A DNA stretch of 64,000 nt, taken from positions 1 through 64,000 of IMG/VR virus record IMGVR_UViG_3300050011_000542; one strand, given 5' to 3'. Shown here piece by piece: positions 3,756-60,864 of this stretch. Both the position numbers and the translations under genes were made by a program. Position 1 is the first letter of the stretch. Each line of letters opens with the position of its first letter. The notes beneath the pieces were generated by a model. That model had not been told where the DNA came from, ran no database searches, and saw nothing but the letters and a program-made list of their open reading frames with translations. This stretch comes from a virus.

Positions 3756-5607
3756 CGTGCTCCGGCAGAAGCTGGAAGCCTGTCGTATCGTCTTAGAGCA
3801 GTACACCCTGTCTGGGCCGATAGTGCTGCAATACGGCCTTACCATGAAGGACGTGCGCGAGCGCGTGTCCTACTACGTCCGCATGATTAAGCACTTCCAG
3901 GGTATTGAAAGCCCAGAGAAGTATCTATGCCTCCCCGTAGACGCCGACACCTTTCTCATGGCTCCGGAGCTGGGCAACCATAGCGAGTCTGTATATCCCG
4001 AAGTGCGCAGGTGTTTCGCCGAGTTGAATTCTGGGCAGTATGTAGAGGGTGTGTTCACCGGAGGCATCGGGTCAGGTAAAACTCAGATCTCACTATGGAC
4101 ACAAGAGTTTCAGCTTTACTTGCTGTCTTGCTTGAAGAACCCACACAGGGAATTCAACCTAGACCCGTCCAGTGAGATTATGTTCGTGTTCCAGAACCTC
4201 TCTGGGAAGCTGGCTAAGGTTGTCGACTTTGACAGGTTCAAAGCCTCCGTAGAGCAGATTGCCTATTTCAAACTGCATTTCCCGTTCGACCCTAATTTAA
4301 CTTCAGAGTTAAGATTTCCAAGACGAATTATAATAAAACCTCTTACTGGTGATGTAGGTGCAGCTATTGGTCAAAACATTTTTGGCGGGATTATCGATGA
4401 GGTGGATTTTATGGCCATCGTCGAGAAGTCCAAACAATCAACAGACGGTGGTGAATTTGACCAAGCTAAGGAAATGTATGATTCTATTGTTAGAAGGCGC
4501 AAATCTCGCTTCTTAATTAATGGCAAGATGCTTGGTATGCTTTGCCTTGTTTCTTCTAAAAGGTATCCGGGGGCTTTCACAGATAGAAAGGAGCTGGAGG
4601 CCAAGACTGATAATACGATCTATGTTTACAACAAGCGTGTCTGGGAGATTAAACCGCCTGGCACTTATTCCGGCGAATGGTTCTATGTTTACATTGGCAC
4701 TGATAGTCAGAAGCCCCGCATACTCCAAGATGGAGAAGACGTAAGTGGCCTCAACCCAGATTTAATTAGGCCGATACCTGTAGAGCTTCGCACTGAGTTC
4801 AACCGCGATCTCCTGTCGGCTCTGCGGGACATCGCGGGCGTAGCCACCCTGGCGCTGCACCCGTTCATTCTCGATCGTGATGCTTTAGGCCGGGCTTTTG
4901 GCCGCTGCATCTCGATCTTGTCTTCTGAGACGTGTGATTTCACGACCTCGCAACTGAAGATTTTCCCGCGTCGGTTTATCCGGCAGCAAGAGCCCCGGTG
5001 GATACACCTAGACATCGGTATCACTAAGGACAGCCTGGGCATGTCTTGTGCCTGGGTGCCGGGGTTTGTGAACATTCCCCGCACCGAAGATGAGTCAGAG
5101 CAGCTGCCACAGATCCAGTTTGATTTTGTATTGGAAGTACCGCCCCCACCTCACGGGGAAATCTCGCTAGAGCGGGTACGGTCGGTTATCTACAAATTAA
5201 GAGAGCAGGGCCTTAACATTCGATGGGTGTCTATGGACTCGTCGAACTGCCGTGACATGATGCAGATCTTGCGTAGTCGAGGTCTTACGTCTGGCTACAT
5301 CTCGGTAGATGCCACATCACTGCCTTATGACCTCTGCAAGACAGCTATGTACGACGGCCGGTTGTCGGCCCCGATGCACGATAAGGCTTTGTCTGAATTC
5401 GGAAGGCTTGAGGTGGATGTCAAATCAGGGAAGATCGATCACCCGGCAGATGGTAGCAAAGATTCGAGCGACAGCATGGCAGGTTGTGTGTATGGCCTCA
5501 CCATGCGCCGAGAGATTTGGCACCGCTACGGCATCCCGCCCAATGCAATTCCCCGGAGCCTGATAGCTAAGATCCAGTCAGGGCCAAGCCAAGGAGTGGC
5601 GATATGA
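3730..5607 (+). CDS. terL: Terminase large subunit
   Basis: The ATP-driven packaging motor and headful/site nuclease. From TTG 3730 it is 625 residues. AGGA at 3721 supports this start; GTG 3757 is the alternative. Walker A is GGIGSGKT at about residues 111-118. Walker B is GGIIDEVDF, about 110 residues later. The C-terminal RNase H-like nuclease shows HLDIGITKDSLG and the metal-site stretch DHPADGSKDSSDSMAG. Length and motif order are normal for TerL. Longer upstream readings would run through the preceding gene and are unlikely. Confidence 0.93.
   Translation: MNSPHQQIDVLRQKLEACRIVLEQYTLSGPIVLQYGLTMKDVRERVSYYVRMIKHFQGIESPEKYLCLPVDADTFLMAPELGNHSESVYPEVRRCFAELNSGQYVEGVFTGGIGSGKTQISLWTQEFQLYLLSCLKNPHREFNLDPSSEIMFVFQNLSGKLAKVVDFDRFKASVEQIAYFKLHFPFDPNLTSELRFPRRIIIKPLTGDVGAAIGQNIFGGIIDEVDFMAIVEKSKQSTDGGEFDQAKEMYDSIVRRRKSRFLINGKMLGMLCLVSSKRYPGAFTDRKELEAKTDNTIYVYNKRVWEIKPPGTYSGEWFYVYIGTDSQKPRILQDGEDVSGLNPDLIRPIPVELRTEFNRDLLSALRDIAGVATLALHPFILDRDALGRAFGRCISILSSETCDFTTSQLKIFPRRFIRQQEPRWIHLDIGITKDSLGMSCAWVPGFVNIPRTEDESEQLPQIQFDFVLEVPPPPHGEISLERVRSVIYKLREQGLNIRWVSMDSSNCRDMMQILRSRGLTSGYISVDATSLPYDLCKTAMYDGRLSAPMHDKALSEFGRLEVDVKSGKIDHPADGSKDSSDSMAGCVYGLTMRREIWHRYGIPPNAIPRSLIAKIQSGPSQGVAI
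5588..5600 (+). promoter_or_regulatory. Weak CsrA-type SD hairpin (7-nt loop)
   Basis: GCC/GGC 3-bp stem with loop AAGGAGT containing the SD of the 5604 gene. The loop is one base longer than the canonical form. Confidence 0.45.
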
Positions 5608-5789
5608 ATTTCATCTTCTGGTCCGATACCAATGAGCGTCTGTGGCAGGACGCCGTAGACGCCGCAGGCTTCGATGTACGCTATCAGGTGATCCAGTCAG
5701 GCTCACGAAACTGCGGGGTGTTTACCGGCAATCTGCCAGACAGCCTGATAGACCTCGCTAAAGAGCTGGGCGCTGACATTATAGATTAG
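5604..5789 (+). CDS. Hypothetical protein (61 aa)
   Basis: Small protein whose ATG overlaps the terL stop (ATGA), with a good SD (AAGGAG) 7-12 bases upstream. Sequence such as FDVRYQVIQSGSRNCGVFTG suggests a compact alpha/beta fold. No recognised family. Confidence 0.65.
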   Translation: MNFIFWSDTNERLWQDAVDAAGFDVRYQVIQSGSRNCGVFTGNLPDSLIDLAKELGADIID

Positions 5790-5802
5790 ACCAAGGAGGG
5801 TC
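5789..5802 (+). promoter_or_regulatory. CsrA-type SD hairpin of the 5805 gene
   Basis: 4-bp stem GACC/GGTC, hexaloop AAGGAG, start GTG at 5805. Confidence 0.8.
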
Positions 5803-5804
5803 AT

Positions 5805-6278
5805 GTGCGTAACTACGAAGTGATCGAACGCTGCGTTCTCGCCACCATGCTAGGGTCTGTTGTAGAGAGCCTGCAGAGGCAGGGAATGACTCTGCGAGCA
5901 GATGTGCTCAAATACCTGAACACGGCTGCAGCGGCCCCGCTGGGCGCACTACGGCCCGCTGAAGTGGGTGTGCATGCCCGACACGCTGTCGATATGTCAG
6001 ACGCCCTGCTGAAATCCATTAATGAAGACGATCTCCGTACCGTGCTGTTGATCGTGTGTCTCTTTATCGAGAAGCTGGTTGACGAAGGCTTGTTCGTGGA
6101 TGTGCAGAATCAAGCTGTGCTGATAGCCATGCTGATTGTTACCGAAGCCAAGGAAGATGAAGGAGCGGGCTGGCCCGCCTTGCAAGACCGTCTGATGATG
6201 AGAGCCAGCAACCTGGTTTGTCGAGCCCAGTTGCTGGGGTACTTTACTCAGCTAACCATGAAGCCAATCCTGCATTAG
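5805..6278 (+). CDS. Hypothetical protein (157 aa)
   Basis: GTG start at 5805, three bases after the SD hairpin. Predominantly helical and Leu/Ala rich. It has a hydrophobic segment (TVLLIVCLFIEKLVDEGLFV) that looks amphipathic rather than membrane-spanning. No motif recognised. It is followed by a leader with a promoter. Confidence 0.65.
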   Translation: MRNYEVIERCVLATMLGSVVESLQRQGMTLRADVLKYLNTAAAAPLGALRPAEVGVHARHAVDMSDALLKSINEDDLRTVLLIVCLFIEKLVDEGLFVDVQNQAVLIAMLIVTEAKEDEGAGWPALQDRLMMRASNLVCRAQLLGYFTQLTMKPILH

Positions 6279-6289
6279 TCGCTATTTAA

Positions 6290-6317
6290 TTGACCTCTGC
6301 ACGGGGCCAGGTACTTT
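6290..6317 (+). promoter_or_regulatory. Sigma70-like promoter
   Basis: TTGACC, 16-base spacer, TACTTT, in the 74-base gap before the 6353 gene. The predicted transcript would begin just ahead of the hairpin at 6336. Confidence 0.55.
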
Positions 6318-6335
6318 AACCCGTACCAAATTCCT

Positions 6336-6351
6336 ACACCAATGAGGGTGT
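6336..6351 (+). promoter_or_regulatory. SD hairpin, variant loop AATGAG
   Basis: 5-bp stem ACACC/GGTGT with loop AATGAG. Same architecture as the CsrA-type hairpins, but the loop lacks GGA (TGA instead); the GAGGG SD straddles loop and stem. Start GTG 6353. Confidence 0.65.
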
Positions 6352-6352
6352 C

Positions 6353-6565
6353 GTGCAGAAGTCAGCTCTCGAAGTTCACGGCCTGTTAAAAGCCAAGGGC
6401 GGCAAAGTCCAGGCTTGGGTGCAACTCGCGCCTGGTCATGGGTTGTTCGTGTATGTGGAAAAAGGACATCTGGCCGATGGGCTCAAGATGTTCAGTTCCG
6501 CCCTCAAGATCGAAGTGGCCGAAATGGAAGACGGCACCCCGATGCTGGGAGGGCCGGCAGCATGA
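6353..6565 (+). CDS. Hypothetical protein (70 aa)
   Basis: Small basic-to-acidic protein, GTG start two bases after the hairpin. Its stop overlaps the ATG of the dikinase-like gene (ATGA), so the two are co-translated. It has no cysteine or catalytic motif. It may be a small partner of the phosphotransferase, judged only by coupling. Confidence 0.6.
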   Translation: MQKSALEVHGLLKAKGGKVQAWVQLAPGHGLFVYVEKGHLADGLKMFSSALKIEVAEMEDGTPMLGGPAA

Positions 6566-8634
6566 TCAAACTCTCCGATATCGTGCGCTTTTCCAAAGAT
6601 TTGAACGCATACGACTACATTACAGAAAAAGGCGAAGAGGCTGCTATAGCCAGGCTAGGAGGTAAGGGCCAGGGCTTGGTCGCCATGACCCTGTTAGGCA
6701 TCCGCGTTCCCCCAGGCTTTATCATCGGGACGGACTGGTGCAATCAATTTCAGCAAGATCCAGAGGGGGTGATGGAGGCGGCGAAAGCCGATCTGCCGGC
6801 CCATCGTAGTTGGATGCAGCTGAGCAGCGTAGCTGGCAAGGATCATCTGGTTTCGGTTCGGTCAGGCGCCCCGGTGTCAATGCCAGGAATGATGGACACC
6901 ATCCTTAATGTCGGTCTCACCAAAGAGACTATGGGTATCTGGGAGAAGAAGCTGGGCCGGCGCACGATGCTCGACTGCTACCGGCGACTGATCTCGATGC
7001 TGGGCACTACGGCTTACGATATTCCGGCCGATCGCTTTGCTATGATCCTGGACAAGATGAAAAACCAGGAGGCTGTAAATAGTGACAAGGATTTAAATGC
7101 TAATGCGCTGGAAGCTATAATAGCCGAGAGCCTGGTGTTGTTCAAAGCCAGCACCGGCAAGGATTTCCCCGATACGGTCGAAGAGCAACTGCTTGTTTCA
7201 ATCGAGACGGTGTTCAAATCCTGGAACAGTGAAAGAGCCAAGATTTATCGTAAGCTCGAAGGCATACCAGACGACCTGGGCACTGCTGTTACCGTTCAGA
7301 TGATGGCCTTCGGCAATCTTAATGAGCAGTCTGGGACAGGCGTGATGTTCTCACGGAATCCCAATACGGGAGAGAACACGCCACTGATCGAGTATCTGGA
7401 CAACGCCCAGGGCGAGGATGTGGTTGCCGGTATCAGGACGCCTTATACCCCTACCGACAAGAAGATGCTGATGGAGTTGAAGAGCATCCTCTACACTCTG
7501 GAACAGATGTACCAGGACATGGTGGATGTCGAGTTCACCGTGCAGGATGGCGTGATCTACGTGCTGCAATCCCGCAAGGGAAAGCGCACGGCACGGGCGG
7601 CTGTCAAAGTGTGGCTCGACATGGATGGTAGCCTGGCTGGCTTTAAGAAGCGGGTAACGCGCAAGCAGCTGCATCAGTTGTTCAAGCCCCAGCTAGACCC
7701 GAGTTTTAAGGCGCCTCCGATGTTCGAGGCTCTCGGGGCGAGTGCTGGTTTCGCCCAGGGCGAGGCAGTGTTCTCGGCCCAGGCTGCAATCGATTGCAAT
7801 GCCGCAGGCAGGCCCTGCATCCTCGTCCGCTCCGAGACTTCTCCTGACGATATCGGAGGCATGGAAGCAGCCAAGGGAGTGCTCACAGCGACAGGTGGCA
7901 GCACATCTCACGCGGCCGTCGTGGCGAGAGGCAGAGACAAGCCATGCGTGGTCGGCTGCACGGCCCTGACATTCCATGAAGACGGCACTGTAGACCTGGG
8001 CGACGTGCTCCGCGAGGGTGACAAGATCGCGATCGACGGCGATACTGGCAGGGTATGGCGTGACGTAGACCTGCCGGTTATATCGGCCGAAGGCAGCGAG
8101 CTTGTCGCCAAAGCTTGCGAGTCGCTGATGTACGATTTAGCCAAGCGAGGGATTGAGATAGCTAAACAAATTATCGATCCTTATGCCTCGACCTTTCTAT
8201 CTTTTTCAGAAGTAGCCGCCGATGCGCTAGTGTTGTATGATCTAACATTGCCAAGTCACAAATTAGAAGACTCAGACTTAGAGTTTCTGGACAGCTGTGG
8301 AAAGACGGTTGATCTAAGCCAAGACCTGGCGACTATGGCTATAACTGCAGCTGCTTTACAGCAGGCTCCAGACAATTGTTACGCTCTGTATCCTTACCGC
8401 AAGAAGTCACCTGATTTGCCTGCCAAAAGGCGTTATGGCCCAGCCCCGGTATCGGTTGGCGAGGCTCTATTCAAAACCACGCCTTGTCAGGTAGCCATGG
8501 AGAGCATCATCGAAGTCGGTCGTTTGCAGGGTTTCCATAAGCTCCGGGCAGCCTTGAAAAAGTCGGGCACCGTAGCACCCTTGTTTCAGGTTGTGCCTTT
8601 AGAGTATGCTTTGTTTTCAGTTCTAGCCGACTAG
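6562..8634 (+). CDS. Pyruvate phosphate dikinase-like phosphotransferase lacking the PEP/pyruvate TIM barrel
   Basis: 690 residues from ATG 6562, overlapping the previous stop. The N-terminal ATP-grasp domain shows SVRSGAPVSMPGMMDT (about 98-113), diagnostic of PPDK. The central swivelling domain has GGSTSHAAVVARG with the phospho-accepting histidine at residue 450. PPDK continues into an approximately 340-residue TIM barrel that binds pyruvate/PEP. Here only about 190 residues follow, without the barrel's signatures. The enzyme should therefore form a phosphohistidine from ATP and pass it to an unknown acceptor. Rifampicin phosphotransferase is a known precedent for such re-targeting. The acceptor is unknown. 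A TGCAA palindrome lies at 7785. Confidence 0.88.
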   Translation: MIKLSDIVRFSKDLNAYDYITEKGEEAAIARLGGKGQGLVAMTLLGIRVPPGFIIGTDWCNQFQQDPEGVMEAAKADLPAHRSWMQLSSVAGKDHLVSVRSGAPVSMPGMMDTILNVGLTKETMGIWEKKLGRRTMLDCYRRLISMLGTTAYDIPADRFAMILDKMKNQEAVNSDKDLNANALEAIIAESLVLFKASTGKDFPDTVEEQLLVSIETVFKSWNSERAKIYRKLEGIPDDLGTAVTVQMMAFGNLNEQSGTGVMFSRNPNTGENTPLIEYLDNAQGEDVVAGIRTPYTPTDKKMLMELKSILYTLEQMYQDMVDVEFTVQDGVIYVLQSRKGKRTARAAVKVWLDMDGSLAGFKKRVTRKQLHQLFKPQLDPSFKAPPMFEALGASAGFAQGEAVFSAQAAIDCNAAGRPCILVRSETSPDDIGGMEAAKGVLTATGGSTSHAAVVARGRDKPCVVGCTALTFHEDGTVDLGDVLREGDKIAIDGDTGRVWRDVDLPVISAEGSELVAKACESLMYDLAKRGIEIAKQIIDPYASTFLSFSEVAADALVLYDLTLPSHKLEDSDLEFLDSCGKTVDLSQDLATMAITAAALQQAPDNCYALYPYRKKSPDLPAKRRYGPAPVSVGEALFKTTPCQVAMESIIEVGRLQGFHKLRAALKKSGTVAPLFQVVPLEYALFSVLAD
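7785..7798. repeat. TGCAA-N4-TTGCA palindrome, copy 2
   Basis: TGCAATCGATTGCA inside the dikinase-like gene. Confidence 0.85.
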
Positions 8635-8643
8635 GAGTGTCTG

Positions 8644-8955
8644 GTGCCTCTCATTCTCACGCTAAAGCAAGGCGAAGGTTTCACGGTCGGAGACAAGACC
8701 GTCATCGTCGACAAGATCCTGTCGGAGACGCAGTTTATCCTGCGGGTAGCTGGCGGCGAGGTTGTCGCGGTAGACGATATGAAAATGACGAAAATCGCCC
8801 CGGGAGTGAGAGTGATGTCGGGCACTCGTGGACAAAACACGCTGGCACGGGTATGTATCGAGGCTCCCTTGGATATGAAGATCCATCGGCGCCAAGGATA
8901 CAGCAATGCCCATTCCGAGAGGCGACATCAATACGGACGGGCTGGGCCGCTATAG
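8644..8955 (+). CDS. csrA: CsrA/RsmA-family RNA-binding translational regulator (with insertion)
   Basis: 103 residues from GTG 8644, SD TAGGAGT at 8632-8638. Residues 3-17 (LILTLKQGEGFTVGD) align with the first strand and turn of CsrA (LILTRRVGETLMIGD in E. coli). Residues 64-86 (QNTLARVCIEAP, then MKIHRRQGY) align with its GNQVRIGVNAP and VHREEIY. His81-Arg82 fall on H43-R44; R44 is the key RNA-binding arginine. R6 of CsrA is Leu here and R7 is Lys8. About 36 extra residues are inserted between strands 2 and 3, so it is longer than the usual ~61. CsrA dimers bind ANGGAN hairpin loops; at least 21 such loops lie at gene starts in this window. Family assignment is by eye but strong. Confidence 0.8.
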   Translation: MPLILTLKQGEGFTVGDKTVIVDKILSETQFILRVAGGEVVAVDDMKMTKIAPGVRVMSGTRGQNTLARVCIEAPLDMKIHRRQGYSNAHSERRHQYGRAGPL

Positions 8956-9229
8956 CCTGGCAGAAGGGATTGTAGAGGCTGCTAAGGCTCAGGGGCTATT
9001 CGGTAATGTTGCGGGCTTCATACTCCGCGCTGCCAGCGAGTCAGGTCCCTACAAGCACCCAGAGGGCAACAGGAGATACTTTAACTACCTGCTCGATATC
9101 CAGGGCGGCGTAGTTGTCGGGATTAAGCGTATGGACAGCGACACGCCAATGTCGCGGGCCGGTGCCAAGAAAGCAGACTTGTCTAAGGAAATCGTGGCCC
9201 AGGTGATAAAGAAGCATCTGGGCGGGTAA
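8906..9229 (+). CDS. Hypothetical protein (107 aa)
   Basis: ATG 8906, overlapping the csrA-like gene by 50 bases in another frame; AAGGAT upstream may be its SD. The protein is alpha/beta (RRYFNYLLDIQGGVVVGIKR) with a Lys-rich C-terminus. No family recognised. The overlap is unusual for this compact genome, and a later start is possible. Confidence 0.6.
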   Translation: MPIPRGDINTDGLGRYSLAEGIVEAAKAQGLFGNVAGFILRAASESGPYKHPEGNRRYFNYLLDIQGGVVVGIKRMDSDTPMSRAGAKKADLSKEIVAQVIKKHLGG

Positions 9230-9239
9230 CACCATGCAA

Positions 9240-9253
9240 CTCCATGGAGGGAG
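9240..9253 (+). promoter_or_regulatory. CsrA-type SD hairpin of the first phosphatase
   Basis: 4-bp stem CTCC/GGAG, hexaloop ATGGAG, ATG at 9257. Both outer stem pairs differ from the GACC/GGTC type, showing compensatory change. Confidence 0.8.
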
Positions 9254-9256
9254 CAA

Positions 9257-9766
9257 ATGGGCAAGCGTAAAGAAGCCGAGCAGCGTCATGCAATTAGTTG
9301 CAACGGCAGCTTTCATCTTTGGTTTATGGGCTACAAGGTAAAGGTTGTCGGGGCACCGTTCCGCAACTTTGTCAAGGCCAAGCCGACTGTGTGCCTGCTC
9401 GAAGAAATTCCGCAATGGATGACAGCCGGCGTTCATCTGCCGATCCAGGACTTTAAGACCCCAGAGATTGGCGAGTTGGAAACCGCCCTGATCAAGTCAG
9501 CTGCCTTGATGGGAGAACATCGTGAGCTCTATGTAGGCTGTGCTGGCGGCTACGGTCGTACAGGGACGTTTCTAGCAGCCCTGGTCAAGATCGCCGACAA
9601 GCCCCCGGCTCACGCAGTGTTCTATGTGAGAGCGGTCTACCACCACAAGGCTGTTGAAACAACCGACCAGTTCAGACTGGTTGAACAATGGAAGCCCAGC
9701 TTCTGGTTCATGCTCAAGTTCAAATGGAGCTTTGTGAAAGGTGTATTCCGGTATCTCTTTACCTAA
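9257..9766 (+). CDS. Protein tyrosine/dual-specificity phosphatase-like protein 1
   Basis: 169 residues. The signature VGCAGGYGRTGTF (about residues 94-106) gives the CX5R phosphatase loop, with nucleophile Cys and phosphate-binding Arg, followed by the usual Thr and a helix. An upstream IQDFKTPEI segment could carry the general acid Asp. The same fold recurs at 10896 with closely similar CX5R and downstream AAL/KAVE sequence, so the two are paralogues. Substrate may be protein phosphotyrosine, phosphoinositol or nucleotide. The nearby ATP-dependent phosphohistidine enzyme suggests a phosphate-transfer theme, by inference only. Confidence 0.8.
   Translation: MGKRKEAEQRHAISCNGSFHLWFMGYKVKVVGAPFRNFVKAKPTVCLLEEIPQWMTAGVHLPIQDFKTPEIGELETALIKSAALMGEHRELYVGCAGGYGRTGTFLAALVKIADKPPAHAVFYVRAVYHHKAVETTDQFRLVEQWKPSFWFMLKFKWSFVKGVFRYLFT
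9289..9302. repeat. TGCAA-N4-TTGCA palindrome, copy 3
   Basis: TGCAATTAGTTGCA near the 5' end of phosphatase 1; arms exact, centre TTAG. Confidence 0.75.
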
Positions 9767-9786
9767 GACCGTCACTCCCATACGAT
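9758..9786 (+). promoter_or_regulatory. Putative promoter with TACGAT -10
   Basis: TTTACC, 17-base spacer, TACGAT, overlapping the end of phosphatase 1. The downstream CGGTTT leader is shared with 32323-32334. Serves the 9814 gene, whose ATG follows AAGGAGAGG. Confidence 0.55.
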
Positions 9787-9813
9787 CGGTTTTATAGGTA
9801 AAGGAGAGGCGTA

Positions 9814-10899
9814 ATGTTGCCTTTTGACACTCTCGGGCATCATCGAGAGAGGCCGGTTAAAAAGAAACTCGATCTGTCATCGGTTCCGGTCGGGGCGGTT
9901 TCGAAGAAGGCCAAGGCATACACCGATAAGCCAATGGTCGAGCCCGTCCATGAAGCGGCCTGGTTCTACGTGTATAGTCAGGCCGACCAGGCGATAGCGA
10001 AGCAGTATCATCCACTGGAGCCACTGCCCCAAGACGTGCTCGATATCGTGATCGACCGCATGGACCACATGAATCGTCTGGCAACCCGGATGTTCTACTA
10101 CCTGCTGGTGGTATGCACCCGCGAGGCTCGGCACGAGCATGGCACTCTTGACTATGAGTTCATGTCTCAGGAGTTCGGCCCCGAAGCCTCTACCTTTCAT
10201 CAGTCGATTAAGTCGAGTGGAGAACAGGGGGCTGTTGGCAAGCTCTATAATCACCCGCCCCTGATGGGCCTGGGCGCTTATACTCGCTCTTTGCAGCACA
10301 TCTTCTACAAGGGCGGTTTTAACGGAGGTTATGGAGGCCCGAAGTGGGGCAGCATAGCTGACTGCCTAGCCTCCTATGCGACCGGCCAGACCACTGGCGA
10401 GGAAATGATCGATACCGCCTTTACGCTGGAGCACAATGGCGGGGCGATGTTTAACAAGAATGTGTTCTTTAGCTTTGCTCACAGTCAAATTCATAAGATT
10501 TTGGATGTTCAGAGGTCGGGGCAAGTTCCGGCTCTGATGATGGCCCCGGTCGGTCAATATCCAAAAAAGTACATACCAGAAGGTATCCTTGAACAGATAC
10601 TGAAGATGAGAAATGTCCTCGGAGAGGATTTCATCGACCGCGCTTATGTGGATTGGTACAAGGTAATGGCCTTGGGCTCTATCCATGACTATTGGGGGTA
10701 CACGACTGCCCAGAAGGAAGTCCACGGCGATAGCCAGTGGGAAGCCCAGGCAGAGAAAATGAAGAACAAACCCGCGAAACAGAATGTGCCTGATTTTAAT
10801 AAGATGCTCGCTACGAAAGAGCCGGCTTGGACGAAAGAAACCCATTTCATCCTGCCAGGGCAGCTCGGCGCCTTGAAGAAACTGGCGAGGGCCGCATGA
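9814..10899 (+). CDS. Conserved-looking hypothetical protein (361 aa) between two phosphatases
   Basis: ATG 9814 with strong SD AAGGAGAGG. A helical protein with a notable Gly-rich section (YKGGFNGGYGGPKWGS, about residues 168-183), then TLEHNGGAMFNKNVFFSFAH (about 208-227). The LEHNGGAMFNK stretch looks like an active or binding site, but I cannot name the family. Flanked by two paralogous CX5R phosphatases and co-translated with the second (ATGA overlap), so it probably acts in the same process. Confidence 0.75.
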   Translation: MLPFDTLGHHRERPVKKKLDLSSVPVGAVSKKAKAYTDKPMVEPVHEAAWFYVYSQADQAIAKQYHPLEPLPQDVLDIVIDRMDHMNRLATRMFYYLLVVCTREARHEHGTLDYEFMSQEFGPEASTFHQSIKSSGEQGAVGKLYNHPPLMGLGAYTRSLQHIFYKGGFNGGYGGPKWGSIADCLASYATGQTTGEEMIDTAFTLEHNGGAMFNKNVFFSFAHSQIHKILDVQRSGQVPALMMAPVGQYPKKYIPEGILEQILKMRNVLGEDFIDRAYVDWYKVMALGSIHDYWGYTTAQKEVHGDSQWEAQAEKMKNKPAKQNVPDFNKMLATKEPAWTKETHFILPGQLGALKKLARAA

Positions 10900-11600
10900 C
10901 CGCTACAGTCAGTCGTTTCGACGAATACCTGTTCGATAAGGACGACGATATGTCCAAGAAGAAGGGTCACAGTCACGGGTATGGTCTTAATGACTTTGGC
11001 CTGGGCAAGTGTGCCCTGTCGCATCCTGCCCTGGTGATAGGCGACCACAAGATCTGGGGCGGCTCGTGCGTGGCCCCGGCCATTACCGATTGTGATGTCT
11101 ACATAGGCTTCGACCGAGGCATGGGACTGACCGCCAAGCGGTTTCCCTGGACTAGCGGCCACGAGTTCCTGTTTCCGATCCCCGACATGGGTGTGCCCGC
11201 CACTGTCCCGACTTTCAGGGCGTTGGTAAAATGGACTGCCCAGCAGCTGGAAGAAGGTTTGAAGGTGCATTGCGGCTGTATAGGAGGCCACGGCCGCACC
11301 GGCACGTTCCTAGCCGCCCTGGTCAAGGAAATGACCGGCAACGAAGACGCCATCGAATATGTGCGCGAGCACTACTGCAAGAAGGCTGTTGAGTCGAACG
11401 AGCAGATAGCCTTTCTGGTCAAGAATTTCGGCATCAAGTCGACCAAGGCCAACAAGGTATGGAGTCACAGCCCAGCCAAGTCAGCTATCAAGTGGCCAGC
11501 CCAGACAGGCAGTAGCAAGGCAGCAGCTGTAAATGCCAACAGCAACACTTTCTTCCCGATGAAGACCGGCTACACGCTATTTACTGCCGGTAAAACTTGA
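10896..11600 (+). CDS. Protein tyrosine/dual-specificity phosphatase-like protein 2
   Basis: 234 residues from ATG 10896, overlapping the previous stop, with GAGGG as SD. VHCGCIGGHGRTGTFLAAL (about residues 126-144) is the CX5R loop; FPIPDMGVPATVP upstream may supply the acid Asp. It resembles phosphatase 1 through the loop and the following HYCKKAVESNEQ (phosphatase 1: YHHKAVETTDQ). Compared with phosphatase 1 it has a longer N-terminus with a DDD stretch and a basic C-terminal tail. Confidence 0.8.
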   Translation: MTATVSRFDEYLFDKDDDMSKKKGHSHGYGLNDFGLGKCALSHPALVIGDHKIWGGSCVAPAITDCDVYIGFDRGMGLTAKRFPWTSGHEFLFPIPDMGVPATVPTFRALVKWTAQQLEEGLKVHCGCIGGHGRTGTFLAALVKEMTGNEDAIEYVREHYCKKAVESNEQIAFLVKNFGIKSTKANKVWSHSPAKSAIKWPAQTGSSKAAAVNANSNTFFPMKTGYTLFTAGKT

Positions 11601-11624
11601 TCCCATCGGGGATATGACTACGAT
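11597..11624 (+). promoter_or_regulatory. Putative promoter with TACGAT -10
   Basis: TTGATC, 16-base spacer, TACGAT, followed by ACCCTCATAACAAATT. Nearly the same -10 and downstream run as at 59871. It drives the 11661 operon. Confidence 0.6.
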
Positions 11625-11640
11625 ACCCTCATAACAAATT

Positions 11641-11654
11641 TCCCATGGATGGGG
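11641..11654 (+). promoter_or_regulatory. CsrA-type SD hairpin of the 11661 gene
   Basis: CCC/GGG stem plus a U-G pair closes loop ATGGAT. It places the start at ATG 11661 rather than the in-frame ATG inside the loop. Confidence 0.7.
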
Positions 11655-11660
11655 CCGGTA

Positions 11661-12467
11661 ATGATATCGTTTACTAACCTTGCAAACCTCAATCTGGAGT
11701 GCCTCACGGCCGACGCCATGCTGGCGCCTTTGGCGAAAGACCTGCAGACGCAAGGTGTGAAGCTGTCTCCGAGTGCCAAGGGTCTCGATCTGCTGAAAGA
11801 CGGAAAATACGTGTACCGGGGCGTGTCGCTGCGCCCACAGACGGTTCTGGATTTCCTCGATAAGAAGCTGGGCGATCGGCAGATGTCGGTGCGGACGCTG
11901 CTGCTGCACTGGCTTAATGGTGCCAGCATGGCTGCTGAGAAGACCCCAAATGAAGCGTCTACGCTAAAGGAAGCTTGGCAAAAAGCTGCGGCTTCAGGAG
12001 GTGACATTATCCTGAAACCGCCCAGTGAAAAGATCAAGATAGAAACGATCAATGTAACCGGGGCCGGTAGTTATCCGGTTTCTAGTGACCCTTTGGAAGC
12101 CTCTATCGTTAAGCTGGCCCAGGCCACGGCGCTATATCAACGAGTACACGGTACTGGGGCTGGCACGATCTATTTTATGATCGCGGCCACTGCAGACGGC
12201 AGCTTAAAGCTGGCTGCCAGGTATCTGGCCAGCGGCAACAAGCTTACTCTCCGGGCCGAAGGTAGCATGATTAAGCATGGGGCTCGTCTGCAAGCGGCCG
12301 GGATCGACGTGAAGAAAGACTATGCTTCGGTGCATCTGCATGCCGAGAACAATCAGATGCTGGCCAGGGCTTTGGGGGCGTTCCTCTATGCCCTGGATGT
12401 AGAGTGGGCGACTCCACTGCCCCGGCTTAGCACGATTATATCGCTATGCGCTCACGGGGCTAAGTGA
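11661..12467 (+). CDS. Hypothetical protein (268 aa)
   Basis: Starts at ATG 11661 after the SD hairpin. Mixed alpha/beta, with AGTIYFMIAATADGSLKLAA (about 165-184) and HLHAENNQMLARALGAFLYA (about 225-244). No catalytic motif recognised. First gene of an operon leading to the DNA polymerase. Confidence 0.7.
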   Translation: MISFTNLANLNLECLTADAMLAPLAKDLQTQGVKLSPSAKGLDLLKDGKYVYRGVSLRPQTVLDFLDKKLGDRQMSVRTLLLHWLNGASMAAEKTPNEASTLKEAWQKAAASGGDIILKPPSEKIKIETINVTGAGSYPVSSDPLEASIVKLAQATALYQRVHGTGAGTIYFMIAATADGSLKLAARYLASGNKLTLRAEGSMIKHGARLQAAGIDVKKDYASVHLHAENNQMLARALGAFLYALDVEWATPLPRLSTIISLCAHGAK

Positions 12468-12676
12468 TGTCCAAGTATAAGGTGCCAGCTGAGCTCGTGA
12501 CGGTGATCCAGAGCCTCGGTGTTGGCGATATGGTAGACGGTAGACCCCTGTTCCCCGGCATCTGCGACGAGCCGGTGAAAGCAGAGCTCAGGTTTCGCGA
12601 CGAAGACCAGCACCAGATGCGACTCAGCTATTTCGGGATAAAGCTCTGTACTCGTACTTACGTCGCCAAGGAATAG
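12467..12676 (+). CDS. Hypothetical protein (69 aa)
   Basis: ATG 12467 overlaps the previous TGA; GTG 12464 is possible. Small protein with no recognised motif, in the polymerase operon. Confidence 0.55.
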   Translation: MSKYKVPAELVTVIQSLGVGDMVDGRPLFPGICDEPVKAELRFRDEDQHQMRLSYFGIKLCTRTYVAKE

Positions 12677-12678
12677 GC

Positions 12679-13119
12679 ATGTCGCACACGTACCCGACCA
12701 TTTCTCTCTACACTCTGGCTGATACGCTGGAATGTAAGATCGAGGTTAACAAGCAGGGCCTGGTCGAGGTAGCGCGACCCGTCCGGTTTTCGGCCCCGAA
12801 AGGTATGGCCTTTGAAGAGAAGATGATGGCGATTGGCTCATGCTTTATTCCCGATGAGAAAGTCACCTGCCTACTGCTAAAGCTTGATGTCGAGGGTGAT
12901 CTAAGAGTAATCCTGGGCACGTCGTCATCGGCCACTCCGGAGACCTTCGTTTGGTTTGTTGATGCGTCGAAGTCTAAGGATTTAAGCAAGTTCGACGATC
13001 TTGAGTCTCTGCCTGATCTGTTTGGTATGGTCGGGGCCGGGTTGGTAAAGTGCTTTATGCAGAAGGGCAAGAACACGCCTTGGCACGAACGCGACCTTAA
13101 TGAGTTTCTTGTGCTTTAG
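12679..13119 (+). CDS. Hypothetical protein (146 aa)
   Basis: ATG 12679, two bases after the previous stop; AAGGAA upstream. Beta-rich N-terminal half and an acidic middle (DASKSKDLSKFDDLESLPDL). Function unknown. Confidence 0.65.
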   Translation: MSHTYPTISLYTLADTLECKIEVNKQGLVEVARPVRFSAPKGMAFEEKMMAIGSCFIPDEKVTCLLLKLDVEGDLRVILGTSSSATPETFVWFVDASKSKDLSKFDDLESLPDLFGMVGAGLVKCFMQKGKNTPWHERDLNEFLVL

Positions 13120-13130
13120 GAGTTAGGCTT

Positions 13131-13352
13131 ATGGCCGCACTAAAATTAGGAACGACTTCTGAATTTATAGAGTTTGTTAGGCAAGGTACTCAGATTCATG
13201 TCTTCATTCGTGAGAAGGCGTGCCCAGAAACCAAAAACAAACCGTCTCATTGTGAATTCACGCTGGGTATGGCCGAGGCTGAGAAACTAGCAGCGTGGTT
13301 ACAGAGACGAGTTTCACCACGGACGGTGATTGATGCTAACGATCTGGACTGA
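13131..13352 (+). CDS. Hypothetical protein (73 aa)
   Basis: ATG 13131 with AGGAG upstream. Small beta/alpha protein ending in NDLD. It overlaps the polymerase start by 20 bases, so translation is probably coupled. No recognised family. Confidence 0.6.
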   Translation: MAALKLGTTSEFIEFVRQGTQIHVFIREKACPETKNKPSHCEFTLGMAEAEKLAAWLQRRVSPRTVIDANDLD

Positions 13353-15702
13353 CCAGTACGATAAGAAGGTTCTCGACCAGACAATCGGGGCTGGGTTGAA
13401 AGACCTGCCTGATGTGCCTGAGCATCGTATGCTCGCCTTGAAAGACGAGCTGTACTTACCGCAGGTAGGAGAGGTTGTTCTAGCCTGCGGTAAGAAGGCT
13501 TTGCAGCTGCTGCAGGCCCACAAGCTCGTACCGAAGAACCGGGGCTTAGAATCTCAGCGCGGTAATGCTATCCAAGCCTCGGCCGAGGGCGGTAAGTATC
13601 TAATCACGGTCGACCCCTACCTAATCAACAGCGATGCTAACATTGGTTTTGAGATAGGCTGGGACATACGCCTGGCCTGGCGTTTGCTCAAGCACGGTCA
13701 TACCAGGGCGATCCTGGGCAACTATCGCTGGGTGCCAGACTTCTCCGATGCAATCAATTGCATCAAAGCCAAATTCGCCCAGACCGGAAAGCCAGTCTCT
13801 ATATCCATGGATACCGAATCCATGGGCCTTTACCCATGGTATCCAGATAAGCACCTGCTCACTGTCCAGGTTACGCATACGGTTGGCATGGCCGATGTCT
13901 ACAAGGTGCCAGCGGGTGGCCAGTTCCATCCTGAAGTCGCCCAGCAAATCTCCTGGCTGCTCAACAGCCCTATGGTTAAGACCAGGGGAGCTAACTTCAA
14001 ACACGACCTGTTGTGGTTCTGGGTGAAGCTCAGTTTGGAATGTTCGAACTTCAGCCTCGACACGACCTTGGCAGGCAGTTTGTTAAATGAAAATCGCTCG
14101 AACAGTTTGAATACTCACGTCAAGTGGTACGACCCAGAATTGGGTGGCTACGACGATGACCTGAACAACAAGCATGATAAAGGGCACATGGAGCTCGTGC
14201 CTGACGACGAGTTATTGCCCTACGCAGGAGGCGACACGGACGGCGATCTACGAGTCTCCAATCACATGATTAAAGAACTGGGCCAAGACCAGCAGTTGTT
14301 CAAGTTTTACATCACGATCCGCCATCCTTCGGCGCGAGCCTTCGAGAAGATTGAACGTCGAGGCGTGGTGTTCGATGTTGAGAAGGCGACCAAGCTAGGC
14401 GAGGAGCTGCAAGCGACTTCGAAGGAGCTGAACAGGGAAGCACTAGATCTGCTTCCGGCTCGGCTTAAAATGAAGTACATGGACAACCTGTCGCTCACGC
14501 GACCGGCGATCCTGCGTGATTATTTCTTTACGCCTCTGGGCCTCAATCTAAAGCCTAGGGTTTACACAGCTTCTGTAGAGAACCCGCAGCCGTCTACGGC
14601 CAAGTCGCATTTGCAGATGTTTGCTGACGATCCTGCAGCTAAACGCATGTGCGAAGTCATGACCGAGATGCGGTCGTGCGATAAGATGAACAGCACGTAT
14701 GTTGTCGGTTTCTTGTCTCACCTACGCCCTGATGGTTTGTTACACCCGACATATTTCCTGTTCAAGGGCGAAGCCTACGAGAACGATGACGGGGATGATG
14801 ATGCGGGGGTTGTTACCAGCAGACTCTCCTGTCGCGATCCGGCTTTCCAGACAATTCCCAAGCGCTCGAAGTGGGCTAAAAAGATTAGAGCCTGTTACCC
14901 GGCCCCGCCAGGATACGTCATGTGGGCCGTAGATTATTCCCAAGGTGAGCTCAAAATTGCCGCTTGCTTGGCAAATGAAAAAACAATGATACAGGTCTAC
15001 CTCGACGGATTTGATCTCCACAGCAAGACTGCTTCAGGTATTGCCGGAATGAGTGTTGAAGACTTTCTTGCATTGGAGCAAAGCAACAACTTGTTGTTTA
15101 CACAGTATCGCACAGCAGGTAAGGCTGGTAACTTTGGTCTTATTTACGGAATGGGAGCAGAAGGCTATCAGGTGTATTGTTGGGCTCAGTTCGGGGTTAA
15201 GAAAACGATTGAAGAGTGCGAGAACGAGCGCAACGCCTTCTTCGCCACTTACCCGGAGCTATTGCCCTGGCACGCTAATTACAAACACATGGCCCATCAA
15301 AACGGGCATGTACGATCGCCTTTGGGTGTTGCCAGGCACCTACCTCTGATCCATAGCCGCAACGGCTATGAGCGCAGTAAGGCTGAAAGAATGGCCGTGA
15401 ATTCCCCGGTGCAAGCGACTCTGTCAAATGCCCTGGAATGGTCTATTGTCCGGGTAGACCAGGAAATACCAGAGGACGACGCCTTCGTTGTCGGCATGGT
15501 TCACGACCAGATGATCGGCTACGCCAAGGCAGATAAGGTCGACAGTATCGTTCCTCAGATCATGGAGCTCTGCGAGACACTGCCGTTTGAGAAAGAGTTT
15601 GGCTGGAAGCCTCAGTTGAAATTCACGGTCGATGCCGAAATCGGCCCCGACATGGCCTCGCTCAAAAAGGTGCCCAGGCCGGAGTTCCTACTCGCAGCAT
15701 AG
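13333..15702 (+). CDS. Family A DNA polymerase with 3'-5' exonuclease
   Basis: 789 residues from ATG 13333. Exonuclease motif I is SISMDTESMG (DxE, near residue 157). LDTTLAGSLLNENRSN corresponds to exo II. Polymerase motif A is WAVDYSQGELKIAA (about 531), motif B RTAGKAGNFGLIYG (about 593-606), and motif C VHDQ (about 723; HDE in E. coli Pol I, so Gln replaces the metal-site Glu). No 5' nuclease domain, as usual for phage Pol A. It replicates the phage genome with the DnaB-like helicase and primase at 58.6-62 kb. A TGCAA palindrome lies at 13749. Confidence 0.95.
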   Translation: MLTIWTDQYDKKVLDQTIGAGLKDLPDVPEHRMLALKDELYLPQVGEVVLACGKKALQLLQAHKLVPKNRGLESQRGNAIQASAEGGKYLITVDPYLINSDANIGFEIGWDIRLAWRLLKHGHTRAILGNYRWVPDFSDAINCIKAKFAQTGKPVSISMDTESMGLYPWYPDKHLLTVQVTHTVGMADVYKVPAGGQFHPEVAQQISWLLNSPMVKTRGANFKHDLLWFWVKLSLECSNFSLDTTLAGSLLNENRSNSLNTHVKWYDPELGGYDDDLNNKHDKGHMELVPDDELLPYAGGDTDGDLRVSNHMIKELGQDQQLFKFYITIRHPSARAFEKIERRGVVFDVEKATKLGEELQATSKELNREALDLLPARLKMKYMDNLSLTRPAILRDYFFTPLGLNLKPRVYTASVENPQPSTAKSHLQMFADDPAAKRMCEVMTEMRSCDKMNSTYVVGFLSHLRPDGLLHPTYFLFKGEAYENDDGDDDAGVVTSRLSCRDPAFQTIPKRSKWAKKIRACYPAPPGYVMWAVDYSQGELKIAACLANEKTMIQVYLDGFDLHSKTASGIAGMSVEDFLALEQSNNLLFTQYRTAGKAGNFGLIYGMGAEGYQVYCWAQFGVKKTIEECENERNAFFATYPELLPWHANYKHMAHQNGHVRSPLGVARHLPLIHSRNGYERSKAERMAVNSPVQATLSNALEWSIVRVDQEIPEDDAFVVGMVHDQMIGYAKADKVDSIVPQIMELCETLPFEKEFGWKPQLKFTVDAEIGPDMASLKKVPRPEFLLAA
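13749..13762. repeat. TGCAA-N4-TTGCA palindrome, copy 4
   Basis: TGCAATCAATTGCA inside the polymerase gene. Confidence 0.8.
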
Positions 15703-15720
15703 CATAGCCAATCCGTTTCC

Positions 15721-15745
15721 CCTCCGTAGCCAAGGCACGGAGGCC
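15721..15745 (+). promoter_or_regulatory. Portal leader with two mutually exclusive SD hairpins
   Basis: GGC/GCC (15734-15736/15743-15745) closes loop ACGGAG, a CsrA-type hairpin. Alternatively CCTCCGT (15721-15727) pairs over 7 bp with ACGGAGG (15737-15743) and hides the SD. Both use the same bases, so only one can form. Start GTG 15751. Confidence 0.7.
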
Positions 15746-15750
15746 GAACG

Positions 15751-17421
15751 GTGGCTGGTAGGAAAAAATTAGACCCGGTAGAGGTAGGCCGGGTTTCTGA
15801 AATCGGCCCGATGCCTGTCGAGGCAATGATACAGCGCTCGTTGCAGCCTGTTGTCTGGAGCTCTGACGAAAACAAATACGTTAAGCGCGACAAGGCCGAT
15901 GTAGCTACCAGCGGCACCACGCACTCGAACGCCCTGAGCTACGAAGACGAGTTTACGGCCTTTTATACCGACCCGACTCTGCTGGGCTCTGGCGTCTCGA
16001 TTATGATGCCCCCTTTCAATATGCAGCAGTTGGAAGAGCTGGCCCAGAACAACAATGCCCTGATGCCTTGCATCGACTCGATGATCGCTAACATCGACGG
16101 CACGGGCCACATCATCAAGCCGATCGACAACACCGATCCTAACAAGCGCCAGGAAACCAGCATAGGGTCGCTGAACGATTTCTTCAATGAAGTCTATCCG
16201 GGCATGTCGTTTATCGGCTTACGCAAGCTGATCCGCCGCGATCTGGAAACTGTCGGTAATGCCTTTATCGAAGTGCTTCGGACCATGGACGGCAAGATTG
16301 CTTTCATGCGTCACATCGAAGCCAAGACCATGCGTATCGTGCGGCTCGATAATGCCGTGCTCGTTGCCAAAGAGGTTATGCGTAATGGCAAGCTGGTAAA
16401 GATCAACATCAATGTGCGCGAGCGCCGGTTCGTGCAACGGGTCAATCTCAAGCTGCAGTATTTTAAGGAGTACCAGGCCAGCCGAGAGGTTAGTAAGACT
16501 ACCGGGGCCTGGGAAACTGCCCAGTCCCCTGTTGCAGTAACTGACCGGGGCACTGAAGTTGTTCATTTCATCAAGATGAAAGACCCAGGCACTCCTTATG
16601 GCGTACCGTTGTGGGTTCCGCAAATTCCTAGCGTGCTCGGTAGCCGTAAGGCCGAGGAGTACAATCTCAATTTCTTTGACTCAGGGGGTATCCCGCCGGT
16701 GCTGTTCATCGTCTCTGGCGGTGTAATGGCGGAAAAGGCCAAGGAGTATCTCAACCGCTTAATGTCCTCGTCGGGGTCTCTTAGGTCTCGGGGCGCTGTT
16801 CTTGAAGCCTATGCGACAGATGGCTCTCTGGAGCAGGCGAACAACGTCAAGGTGACGGTCGAGCGCTTCGGTCACGAGCGCCAATCCGATAGCCTGTTCG
16901 AAAACTATGATAAGCGATCGGCGAACCGGGTTCGCATGGCCTGGCGCTTGCCCAGCCTGCTGATCGGGGATGTGACCCAGTACACCTACGCGGCGGCTTA
17001 TGCGAGCTACTCGGTTGCCGAGGCCCAGATATTTTCACTTGAGAGAAAAGACTTCGACGAATTTGTGAACACCAGGCTGTTGCCTGAGCTCGATCCCAAG
17101 CGCGAATTCGTCTTCAAGTCCAATCCGCTCATGGTCAAGGACTCTCCGTTGCAGATGGAGGCTATGACATTGGCAGCCGCTGCTGCGGTGATCGACGGCG
17201 ATGAGTTGGTTACCAACCTCAATCGCATTGCCGGCACTGAGATGCATTACAGCGATAATTCCACTCTGCCCGTAGGACCAATTACTAGTAGAGTGATACC
17301 GGGGCAATCTGCTGATGGCAGTAGCACTGTCGATCAGGGCCATAGCGGGCGTGGGTCTACCCCGCACGTGGCCCCGCGCGGCTCGAAAAAAAGCGTCGAG
17401 CTTGAAGAAGAGCCCACGTAA
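15751..17421 (+). CDS. Portal protein (PBSX-family-like)
   Basis: 556 residues, GTG start. The dodecameric portal forms the DNA channel and docks terminase. ETVGNAFIEVLRTMDGKIAF (about 166-185) and the following HIEAKTMR are typical of the PBSX/XkdE-like portal family. NRVRMAWRLPSLLIGDVTQY and AAAYASYSVAEAQIF (about 390-430) match the conserved stem/wing region. The C-terminal tail is low complexity and charged. It follows the polymerase and starts the head module. Confidence 0.9.
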   Translation: MAGRKKLDPVEVGRVSEIGPMPVEAMIQRSLQPVVWSSDENKYVKRDKADVATSGTTHSNALSYEDEFTAFYTDPTLLGSGVSIMMPPFNMQQLEELAQNNNALMPCIDSMIANIDGTGHIIKPIDNTDPNKRQETSIGSLNDFFNEVYPGMSFIGLRKLIRRDLETVGNAFIEVLRTMDGKIAFMRHIEAKTMRIVRLDNAVLVAKEVMRNGKLVKININVRERRFVQRVNLKLQYFKEYQASREVSKTTGAWETAQSPVAVTDRGTEVVHFIKMKDPGTPYGVPLWVPQIPSVLGSRKAEEYNLNFFDSGGIPPVLFIVSGGVMAEKAKEYLNRLMSSSGSLRSRGAVLEAYATDGSLEQANNVKVTVERFGHERQSDSLFENYDKRSANRVRMAWRLPSLLIGDVTQYTYAAAYASYSVAEAQIFSLERKDFDEFVNTRLLPELDPKREFVFKSNPLMVKDSPLQMEAMTLAAAAAVIDGDELVTNLNRIAGTEMHYSDNSTLPVGPITSRVIPGQSADGSSTVDQGHSGRGSTPHVAPRGSKKSVELEEEPT

Positions 17422-60387: not shown

Positions 60388-60864
60388 ATGAGCTTCACCG
60401 ACAAAGAACTTTCGGATTGTGTGCCGGGCTTGCTCCGCTACGCACGGTCTCTTACCCGTAACCCTGATAAGGCTGAAGACTTATTAAACGACACGATCTG
60501 TCGGGCTTTAAAGAAGCGACATCTTTATACCGAAGACGCCAAGCTGAAACAGTGGCTTGGTGTGATTATGCACAGCCAGTACGTGAATTATGTTCGTAGA
60601 ATTGCCCGCGAAGGAAAGTCTGTAGAGGTTCGAGATACTGATCCGGCTCTGACTTATCAGGCTGATCAAGATTGTGGTCTTAGAATGCGCGATCTTGCTA
60701 GGGCTTTCGGCCAGCTTTCAGAAGATCAGCAGCAGGTTATTATGCTTATCGGCGTTGAAGGAAAACGCTACGATACAGCTGCAGAGATTGTGGGCATCCC
60801 GGTAGGCACTATCCGAAGTCGTTTAAGCCGGGGCCGAGTTAATCTGAAAGAATTAGTTGGTTAA
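60388..60864 (+). CDS. ECF-type sigma factor (EcfG/PhyR sigma-domain-like)
   Basis: 158 residues. Region 2: LLRYARSLTRNPDKAEDLLN and LKQWLGVIMHSQYVNYVRR (about 15-70). Region 4: LSEDQQQVIMLIGVEGKRYD and IVGIPVGTIRSRLSRGRVNL (about 109-155). The pattern is that of alphaproteobacterial EcfG/PhyR sigma domains. No response-regulator receiver domain, so a bona fide sigma factor or an anti-sigma titrator. It could redirect host RNA polymerase to phage promoters or interfere with the general stress response. Its own SD sits in a CsrA-type hairpin. Confidence 0.85.
   Translation: MSFTDKELSDCVPGLLRYARSLTRNPDKAEDLLNDTICRALKKRHLYTEDAKLKQWLGVIMHSQYVNYVRRIAREGKSVEVRDTDPALTYQADQDCGLRMRDLARAFGQLSEDQQQVIMLIGVEGKRYDTAAEIVGIPVGTIRSRLSRGRVNLKELVG

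What the first reader, a model, noticed from the sequence alone, without database searches (positions are those of the whole stretch)
6562..8634. Dikinase-like phosphotransferase without the PEP/pyruvate barrel
ATP-grasp and phosphohistidine domains are intact (H450), but the TIM barrel is replaced by about 190 residues of unknown fold. The acceptor must be something else. Re-targeted versions are known for an antibiotic (rifampicin). A phage version next to a CsrA-like regulator and two phosphatases is unusual.
Basis: partly seen in the sequence, partly recalled or inferred. Interest (0 to 1): 0.78.

Follow-up and report, generated by a model that had tools for sequence, protein, structure and literature searches.

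The report
Barrel-less phage dikinase in conserved cassette
This phage gene, called "pyruvate phosphate dikinase" in databases, keeps the part that loads phosphate from ATP onto a histidine but has lost the part that handles pyruvate; it travels in a fixed five-gene block with two phosphatases, a CsrA-like RNA-binding protein and a protein of unknown fold, so it probably phosphorylates something other than pyruvate.

Summary
Observation confirmed. Gene 6562-8634 encodes 690 aa: a PPDK-type ATP-grasp plus phosphohistidine (swivel) domain, with no PEP/pyruvate barrel. Residues ~506-690 match nothing (Pfam, PDB sequences, PEP-barrel profile), and no PEP barrel is encoded in this phage record or in 13 related complete phages. 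The tested ATP- and phosphate-transfer residues, including H450, are preserved in 74 relatives (one D-to-E change). The protein is not unique: it is a clade of phage proteins in ~39 isolate records and >70 metagenomic phages, usually annotated "PPDK"; one paper docks PEP into it, which our data contradict.

The main new point is context: a strictly conserved block, dikinase / CsrA-like / phosphatase-1 / phrog_20946 / phosphatase-2, between terminase and DNA polymerase (71 of 71 testable loci carry dikinase and a phosphatase beside phrog_20946). phrog_20946 is a confident AlphaFold model without PDB match, with many invariant polar residues. The tail is the least conserved part (17% versus 49-54% identity), so it is unlikely to be a re-targeted active site; the acceptor is more likely held by a partner. 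Closest precedent: M. tuberculosis VadK, a barrel-less PPDK derivative that autophosphorylates its histidine. The substrate is unknown; carriers DLP3 and DLP5 have restriction-resistant DNA.

The parts
6562..8634 (+). Barrel-less PPDK-type dikinase, 690 aa (ATP-grasp ~30-380, linker and phosphohistidine domain ~385-500 with H450, variable C-terminal region ~506-690)
8077..8631 (+). Variable C-terminal region (residues 506-690) in place of the PEP/pyruvate barrel
8644..8955 (+). CsrA-like protein, 103 aa; GTG start directly behind the dikinase stop; in 69 of 71 cassettes
   Evidence: Pfam CsrA 26.1 bits (cut-off 27); PHROG 9500; conservation
9257..9766 (+). PTP1, DSP/PTP-type cysteine phosphatase, CX5R motif (C95-AGGYG-R101), invariant D65
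   Evidence: Pfam PTP-SAK E=1.3e-9; alignment; CX5R in 188 of 191 family members
9814..10899 (+). phrog_20946 protein, 361 aa, all-helical, no known fold match; invariant Y52, Y96, R103, E104, R106, W178, D200, H207, N208, K215, D231, Q233; H107 in 99%
10896..11600 (+). PTP2, second CX5R phosphatase; ATG at 10896 overlaps the phrog_20946 stop
   Evidence: Pfam PTP-SAK E=5.3e-6; alignment; start inferred from the ORF

Best explanation
The protein is an ATP-dependent phosphohistidine phosphotransferase derived from PPDK and stripped of its PEP/pyruvate barrel. Step 1 (inferred from intact residues and from VadK): the ATP-grasp domain binds Mg-ATP and moves one phosphate onto H450 of the swivel domain. 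Step 2 (inferred): instead of swinging to a pyruvate barrel, phospho-H450 delivers its phosphate in trans to an acceptor that is, or is held by, the co-conserved phrog_20946 protein, with the variable C-terminal region acting only as docking or tether. Step 3 (inferred): one or both CX5R phosphatases of the same block remove the phosphate or process the product, giving a phage-encoded phosphorylation/dephosphorylation cycle; the CsrA-like protein probably regulates the block or host mRNAs. Shown here: domain content, intact catalytic residues, absence of any barrel, phage forms as one clade, strict five-gene linkage. Not shown: the acceptor and any biochemical activity.
For: ATP-grasp and His residues K35, R100, Q283, E285, E324, Q336, R338, H450 are invariant in 74 of 74 and D322 in 73 of 74. 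No barrel in cis or in trans in 14 phage records. Phage forms are one clade apart from 17 full-length PPDKs, support 100. 71 of 71 non-redundant phrog_20946 loci with at least 7 kb upstream carry the dikinase and at least one phosphatase, 69 the CsrA-like gene. All seven bacterial-genome hits show the set, one of them on a short contig that holds only the end of the dikinase. The isolate records with phrog_20946, one short fragment apart, all appear in the dikinase list. phrog_20946 keeps a dozen invariant polar or aromatic residues at 33% mean identity, whereas the dikinase tail is at 17%. CX5R in 188 of 191 phosphatases. Precedent: M. tuberculosis VadK has only the same two domains and autophosphorylates its histidine (PMC13400623); HpeHI shows that dikinase functions can be divided between two proteins (PMC12167813).
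Against: No direct evidence that phrog_20946 binds the dikinase or carries the acceptor; strict linkage may reflect lineage history, since the cassette marks one phage clade whose DNA polymerases are at least 40% identical to the window's. Clustering of the invariant residues in the phrog_20946 model could not be inspected. The variable tail could still hold a fast-evolving specificity site. The phosphatases may act on unrelated targets.
Confidence: 0.45

Rival explanations
1. VadK-like regulatory kinase: the autophosphorylated protein binds host metabolic enzymes (or phosphorylates host proteins) and retunes metabolism; phrog_20946 is not its acceptor.
For: Same two domains as VadK, which binds methylcitrate cycle enzymes (PMC13400623); a fast-changing C-terminal region fits host-specific docking; CsrA-like neighbour.
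Against: The block is fixed across phages of alpha- and gammaproteobacteria, while host-directed genes usually come and go; strict linkage with phrog_20946 is unexplained; it falls below the PRK05878 cut-off (372 against 456 bits).
Confidence: 0.25
2. DNA hypermodification: the dikinase phosphorylates a nucleoside or hydroxylated base (or a precursor) and phrog_20946 and the phosphatases complete the replacement.
For: Two carriers have DNA of unknown modification: DLP5 cut by only 4 of 36 enzymes (PMC5834331), DLP3 by 0 of 15 (PMC7326821). The block lies next to DNA polymerase in the carriers examined.
Against: No thymidylate synthase/hydroxymethylase (PF00303) or TGT (PF01702) in 14 records; other modification families were not searched. 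DLP3, DLP5 and this phage share a divergent ThyX that the Vibrio carriers searched lack, an alternative source of modification. No digestion data found for Vibrio or Rhizobium carriers.
Confidence: 0.15
3. Genuine PPDK acting as an auxiliary metabolic gene that makes or uses PEP, as published for Vibrio phage J26.
For: Catalytic N-terminal two thirds are PPDK-like; PMC12038007 reports a TIM-barrel-like PBD and docks PEP.
Against: C-terminal part has no detectable relation to the barrel, no PF02896 in 14 phages; only two short strands in the model's tail; the paper itself aligns only 489 of 691 residues with 1GGO; four of six bacterial genomes with this cassette hold a separate PPDK over the family cut-off in a frame of 895-1016 aa.
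Confidence: 0.03
4. Decaying remnant of a captured PPDK without catalytic function.
For: Loss of an entire domain and a poorly conserved tail.
Against: Nine tested ATP/phosphate-transfer residues kept in 74 relatives with one conservative change; frames intact throughout.
Confidence: 0.03

Closest known systems
M. tuberculosis VadK (Rv1127c; NCBIfam PRK05878/NF004531 by my own reading of the model), PMC13400623
   Same: Barrel-less PPDK derivative: ATP-grasp plus phosphohistidine domain; VadK autophosphorylates H422
   Different: VadK has no described C-terminal extension and no phage cassette; the phage protein scores 372 bits against the 456 cut-off of PRK05878
Pyruvate, phosphate dikinase (TIGR01828; 1KBL)
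   Same: About 33-38% identity in the fold alignments, same catalytic residues
   Different: No PEP/pyruvate barrel; 501 against a cut-off of 843 bits
Rifampin phosphotransferase (RPH)
   Same: ATP-grasp and His swivel chemistry re-targeted to a new acceptor
   Different: RPH has a rifampin-binding domain and a C-terminal His domain; here the order is ATP-grasp, His, variable tail
Two-component dikinases HpeHI (PMC12167813) and phenylphosphate synthase
   Same: Precedent for dikinase domains divided between partner proteins
   Different: There the ATP-grasp is the separate subunit; here ATP-grasp and His are fused and the acceptor part would be separate
Glucan water dikinase with SEX4 phosphatase (from general knowledge)
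   Same: Dikinase working opposite a DSP-type phosphatase
   Different: No glucan-binding domain was found; an analogy only
PHROG 18609 / phage 'PPDK' of RcZahn, DLP3, DLP5, SIO-2, J26
   Same: Same family; 39% identity over the full length with RcZahn
   Different: Previously annotated kinase or PPDK; no barrel-less interpretation or cassette description was found in the papers read

Membership tests
PPDK | ATP-grasp domain with catalytic residues | tested here: met
PPDK | Phosphohistidine swivel domain | tested here: met
   PF00391; H450 in 74 of 74
PPDK | C-terminal PEP/pyruvate TIM barrel (PF02896), in cis or trans | tested here: not met
PPDK | Score over the TIGR01828 cut-off | tested here: not met
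   501 against 843 bits
VadK / PRK05878 | ATP-grasp plus His domain, no barrel | tested here: met
VadK / PRK05878 | Score over the NF004531 cut-off | tested here: not met
   372 against 456 bits
VadK / PRK05878 | Autophosphorylation; binding of methylcitrate cycle enzymes | not testable with these tools
   needs purified protein
Rifampin phosphotransferase | Rifampin-binding domain; score over the RIF_Ptrans_rph cut-off | tested here: not met
   38.8 against 999 bits, best stretch is the His region
PHROG 18609 | Match along the family profile | tested here: met
   E=2e-146, residues 22-517 to 15-514 of 685, tail not matched
CsrA (8644-8955) | Pfam CsrA over cut-off | tested here: inconclusive
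   26.1 against 27 bits
Cysteine phosphatase (PTP1, PTP2) | CX5R loop and general-acid Asp | tested here: met
   188 of 191 members CX5R

The most novel reading that the evidence does not exclude
The dikinase and phrog_20946 form a new two-component phosphotransferase of phages in which a PPDK-derived phosphohistidine donor passes phosphate to an acceptor bound by a protein of new fold, reversed by dedicated phosphatases; the product could be a novel modified nucleotide, DNA base or protein.
Probability: 0.3. Interest if true: 0.82.

Novelty: new variant of a known kind. Interest (0 to 1): 0.6.

Why it matters
A gene repeatedly published as a phage glycolysis enzyme cannot be one. The conserved block of dikinase, two phosphatases, CsrA-like protein and a protein of unknown fold in a wide clade of ~80-112 kb siphophages points to an undescribed phosphorylation cycle, testable in cultured phages (SIO-2, J26, DLP3, RcZahn). 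phrog_20946 is a good target for structure determination, and the DNA of DLP3/DLP5 is an open puzzle that may or may not be linked.

Tried and rejected
Split PPDK: PF02896 absent from 14 phage records. Barrel remnant: profile-profile probability 0.2%. C-terminal domain of known family: nothing consistent in Pfam (19 weak hits, one member each) or PDB sequences, best E 0.12. phrog_20946 of known fold: Foldseek PDB best E 0.74; BFVD gives four significant matches, unnamed, 22-30% identity, probably its own family. PADLOC: no defence family except a chance-level BrxC hit to PTP2 (E 0.0056, 12.4 bits). Rfam in 5000-16000: nothing. Single-sequence scan of viral contigs found none, the alignment scan returned 80. 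DNA-modification families PF00303 and PF01702 absent. Full-length PPDK hits in unverified Listeria, Enterococcus and faecal 'phage' contigs lack the cassette and look bacterial. A first ThyX comparison picked wrong frames for RcZahn and DLP3 and was not used.

Full report
What is there. The window is bases 1-64000 of a 95,216-base virus record. The gene at 6562-8634 starts with ATG after a GGAGG and overlaps the preceding gene by ATGA. Its product has a PPDK-type ATP-grasp domain and a phosphohistidine domain, aligned to C. symbiosum PPDK residues 5-519 and no further. Equivalog scores fall well short of PPDK (501 against 843 bits) and of the PRK05878 model (372 against 456), which is the model of short PPDK-like proteins to which VadK would belong by my reading. 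PHROG calls the family 'kinase' (18609).

No barrel. The last ~185 residues give no Pfam or PDB relative, no profile-profile similarity to the barrels of 13 full-length PPDKs (probability 0.2%), and no PEP-utilizers_C domain occurs in this record or in 13 complete related phages, though the control genomes all ring. AlphaFold2 with 74 sequences gives mean pLDDT 87.6, but block means of 44-88 for the tail, with only two short strands there. Foldseek finds PPDK.

Catalysis intact, tail free. In 74 sequences the tested residues K35, R100, Q283, E285, E324, Q336, R338 and H450 never vary and D322 once. Mean pairwise identity is 49% (ATP-grasp), 54% (linker/His) and 17% (tail); the tail has no invariant position. 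I infer that the tail is docking or linker rather than a conserved acceptor site.

Family and context. tblastn finds the protein in 57 phage records, and IMG/VR gives 149 matching stretches, the best 80 kept. The short phage forms are one clade, support 100, against 17 full-length PPDKs. They sit in one block: dikinase, CsrA-like, PTP1, phrog_20946, PTP2, between terminase and polA/portal; some Vibrio carriers have only one phosphatase. Of 71 non-redundant phrog_20946 loci with at least 7 kb upstream, 71 have dikinase and phosphatase and 69 the CsrA-like gene. Seven bacterial-genome (prophage or binned phage) hits show the same set, one on a short contig with only the dikinase end; of the six genomes searched, four also hold a separate PPDK above the family cut-off in a frame of 895-1016 aa. 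Among isolates, the listed polA hits with about 40% or more identity belong to the group with the cassette, and the next group at ~31% does not appear among dikinase hits. The cassette therefore marks a clade, which also means that linkage alone cannot prove functional coupling.

Partners. Both phosphatases carry CX5R and an invariant Asp; 188 of 191 family members keep CX5R. phrog_17568, their PHROG, is labelled 'thymidylate synthase', apparently a misnomer. phrog_20946 is modelled with pLDDT 91.8 as an almost all-helical protein; no PDB match is better than E 0.74, and BFVD gives only four significant matches at 22-30% identity. At 33% mean identity it has invariant Y52, Y96, R103, E104, R106, W178, D200, H207, N208, K215, D231, Q233, as expected of an active or binding site; this is inference, since coordinates could not be inspected.

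Literature. PMC12038007 presents the J26 homologue as PPDK with a TIM barrel and PEP docking; its own alignment covers 489 of 691 residues, and our results contradict the barrel. PMC13400623 shows that VadK, with the same two domains only, autophosphorylates its histidine. PMC12167813 describes a two-component dikinase. PMC5834331 and PMC7326821 report DNA of DLP5 and DLP3 as largely uncut by restriction enzymes; both carry the cassette. A causal link is untested; these two and the present phage also share a divergent ThyX.

Mechanism. Best supported: an ATP-loaded phosphohistidine donor acting in trans on an acceptor at phrog_20946, opposed by the phosphatases. The donor chemistry is strongly implied (about 0.85); the acceptor assignment is a proposal, giving an overall 0.45. 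Pyruvate is essentially excluded.

Verdict. Literature coverage is limited to the open-licence papers that could be searched.

Noticed in passing
L185:8709-9605 (record 71708-72607): ThyX-like protein whose Pfam Thy1 matches come in reversed order (profile 59-190 first, 13-57 after), suggesting circular permutation; a divergent ThyX match also occurs in DLP3 and DLP5, whose DNA resists restriction enzymes.
   Followed up: partly
L185:2371-4443 (record 65370-67445): RecA with intein splicing domain and weak LAGLIDADG match.
   Followed up: no
window 60388-60864: Phage-encoded ECF-type sigma factor (Sigma70 regions 2 and 4).
   Followed up: no
L019:5989-7086 (Bacillus phage G gp139): A separate short phage dikinase of about 366 aa with ATP-grasp and His motif, internally shortened, no C-terminal tail and no cassette.
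   Followed up: partly
window 9257-9766 and 10896-11600: PHROG 17568 is named 'thymidylate synthase' but its members here are CX5R phosphatases; the label appears in phage records such as SIO-2 and DLP5.
   Followed up: yes
window 11649-12467: 272-aa protein between PTP2 and polA, weak match to phrog_25950 (unknown function); a gene of similar size holds this place in many relatives.
   Followed up: no
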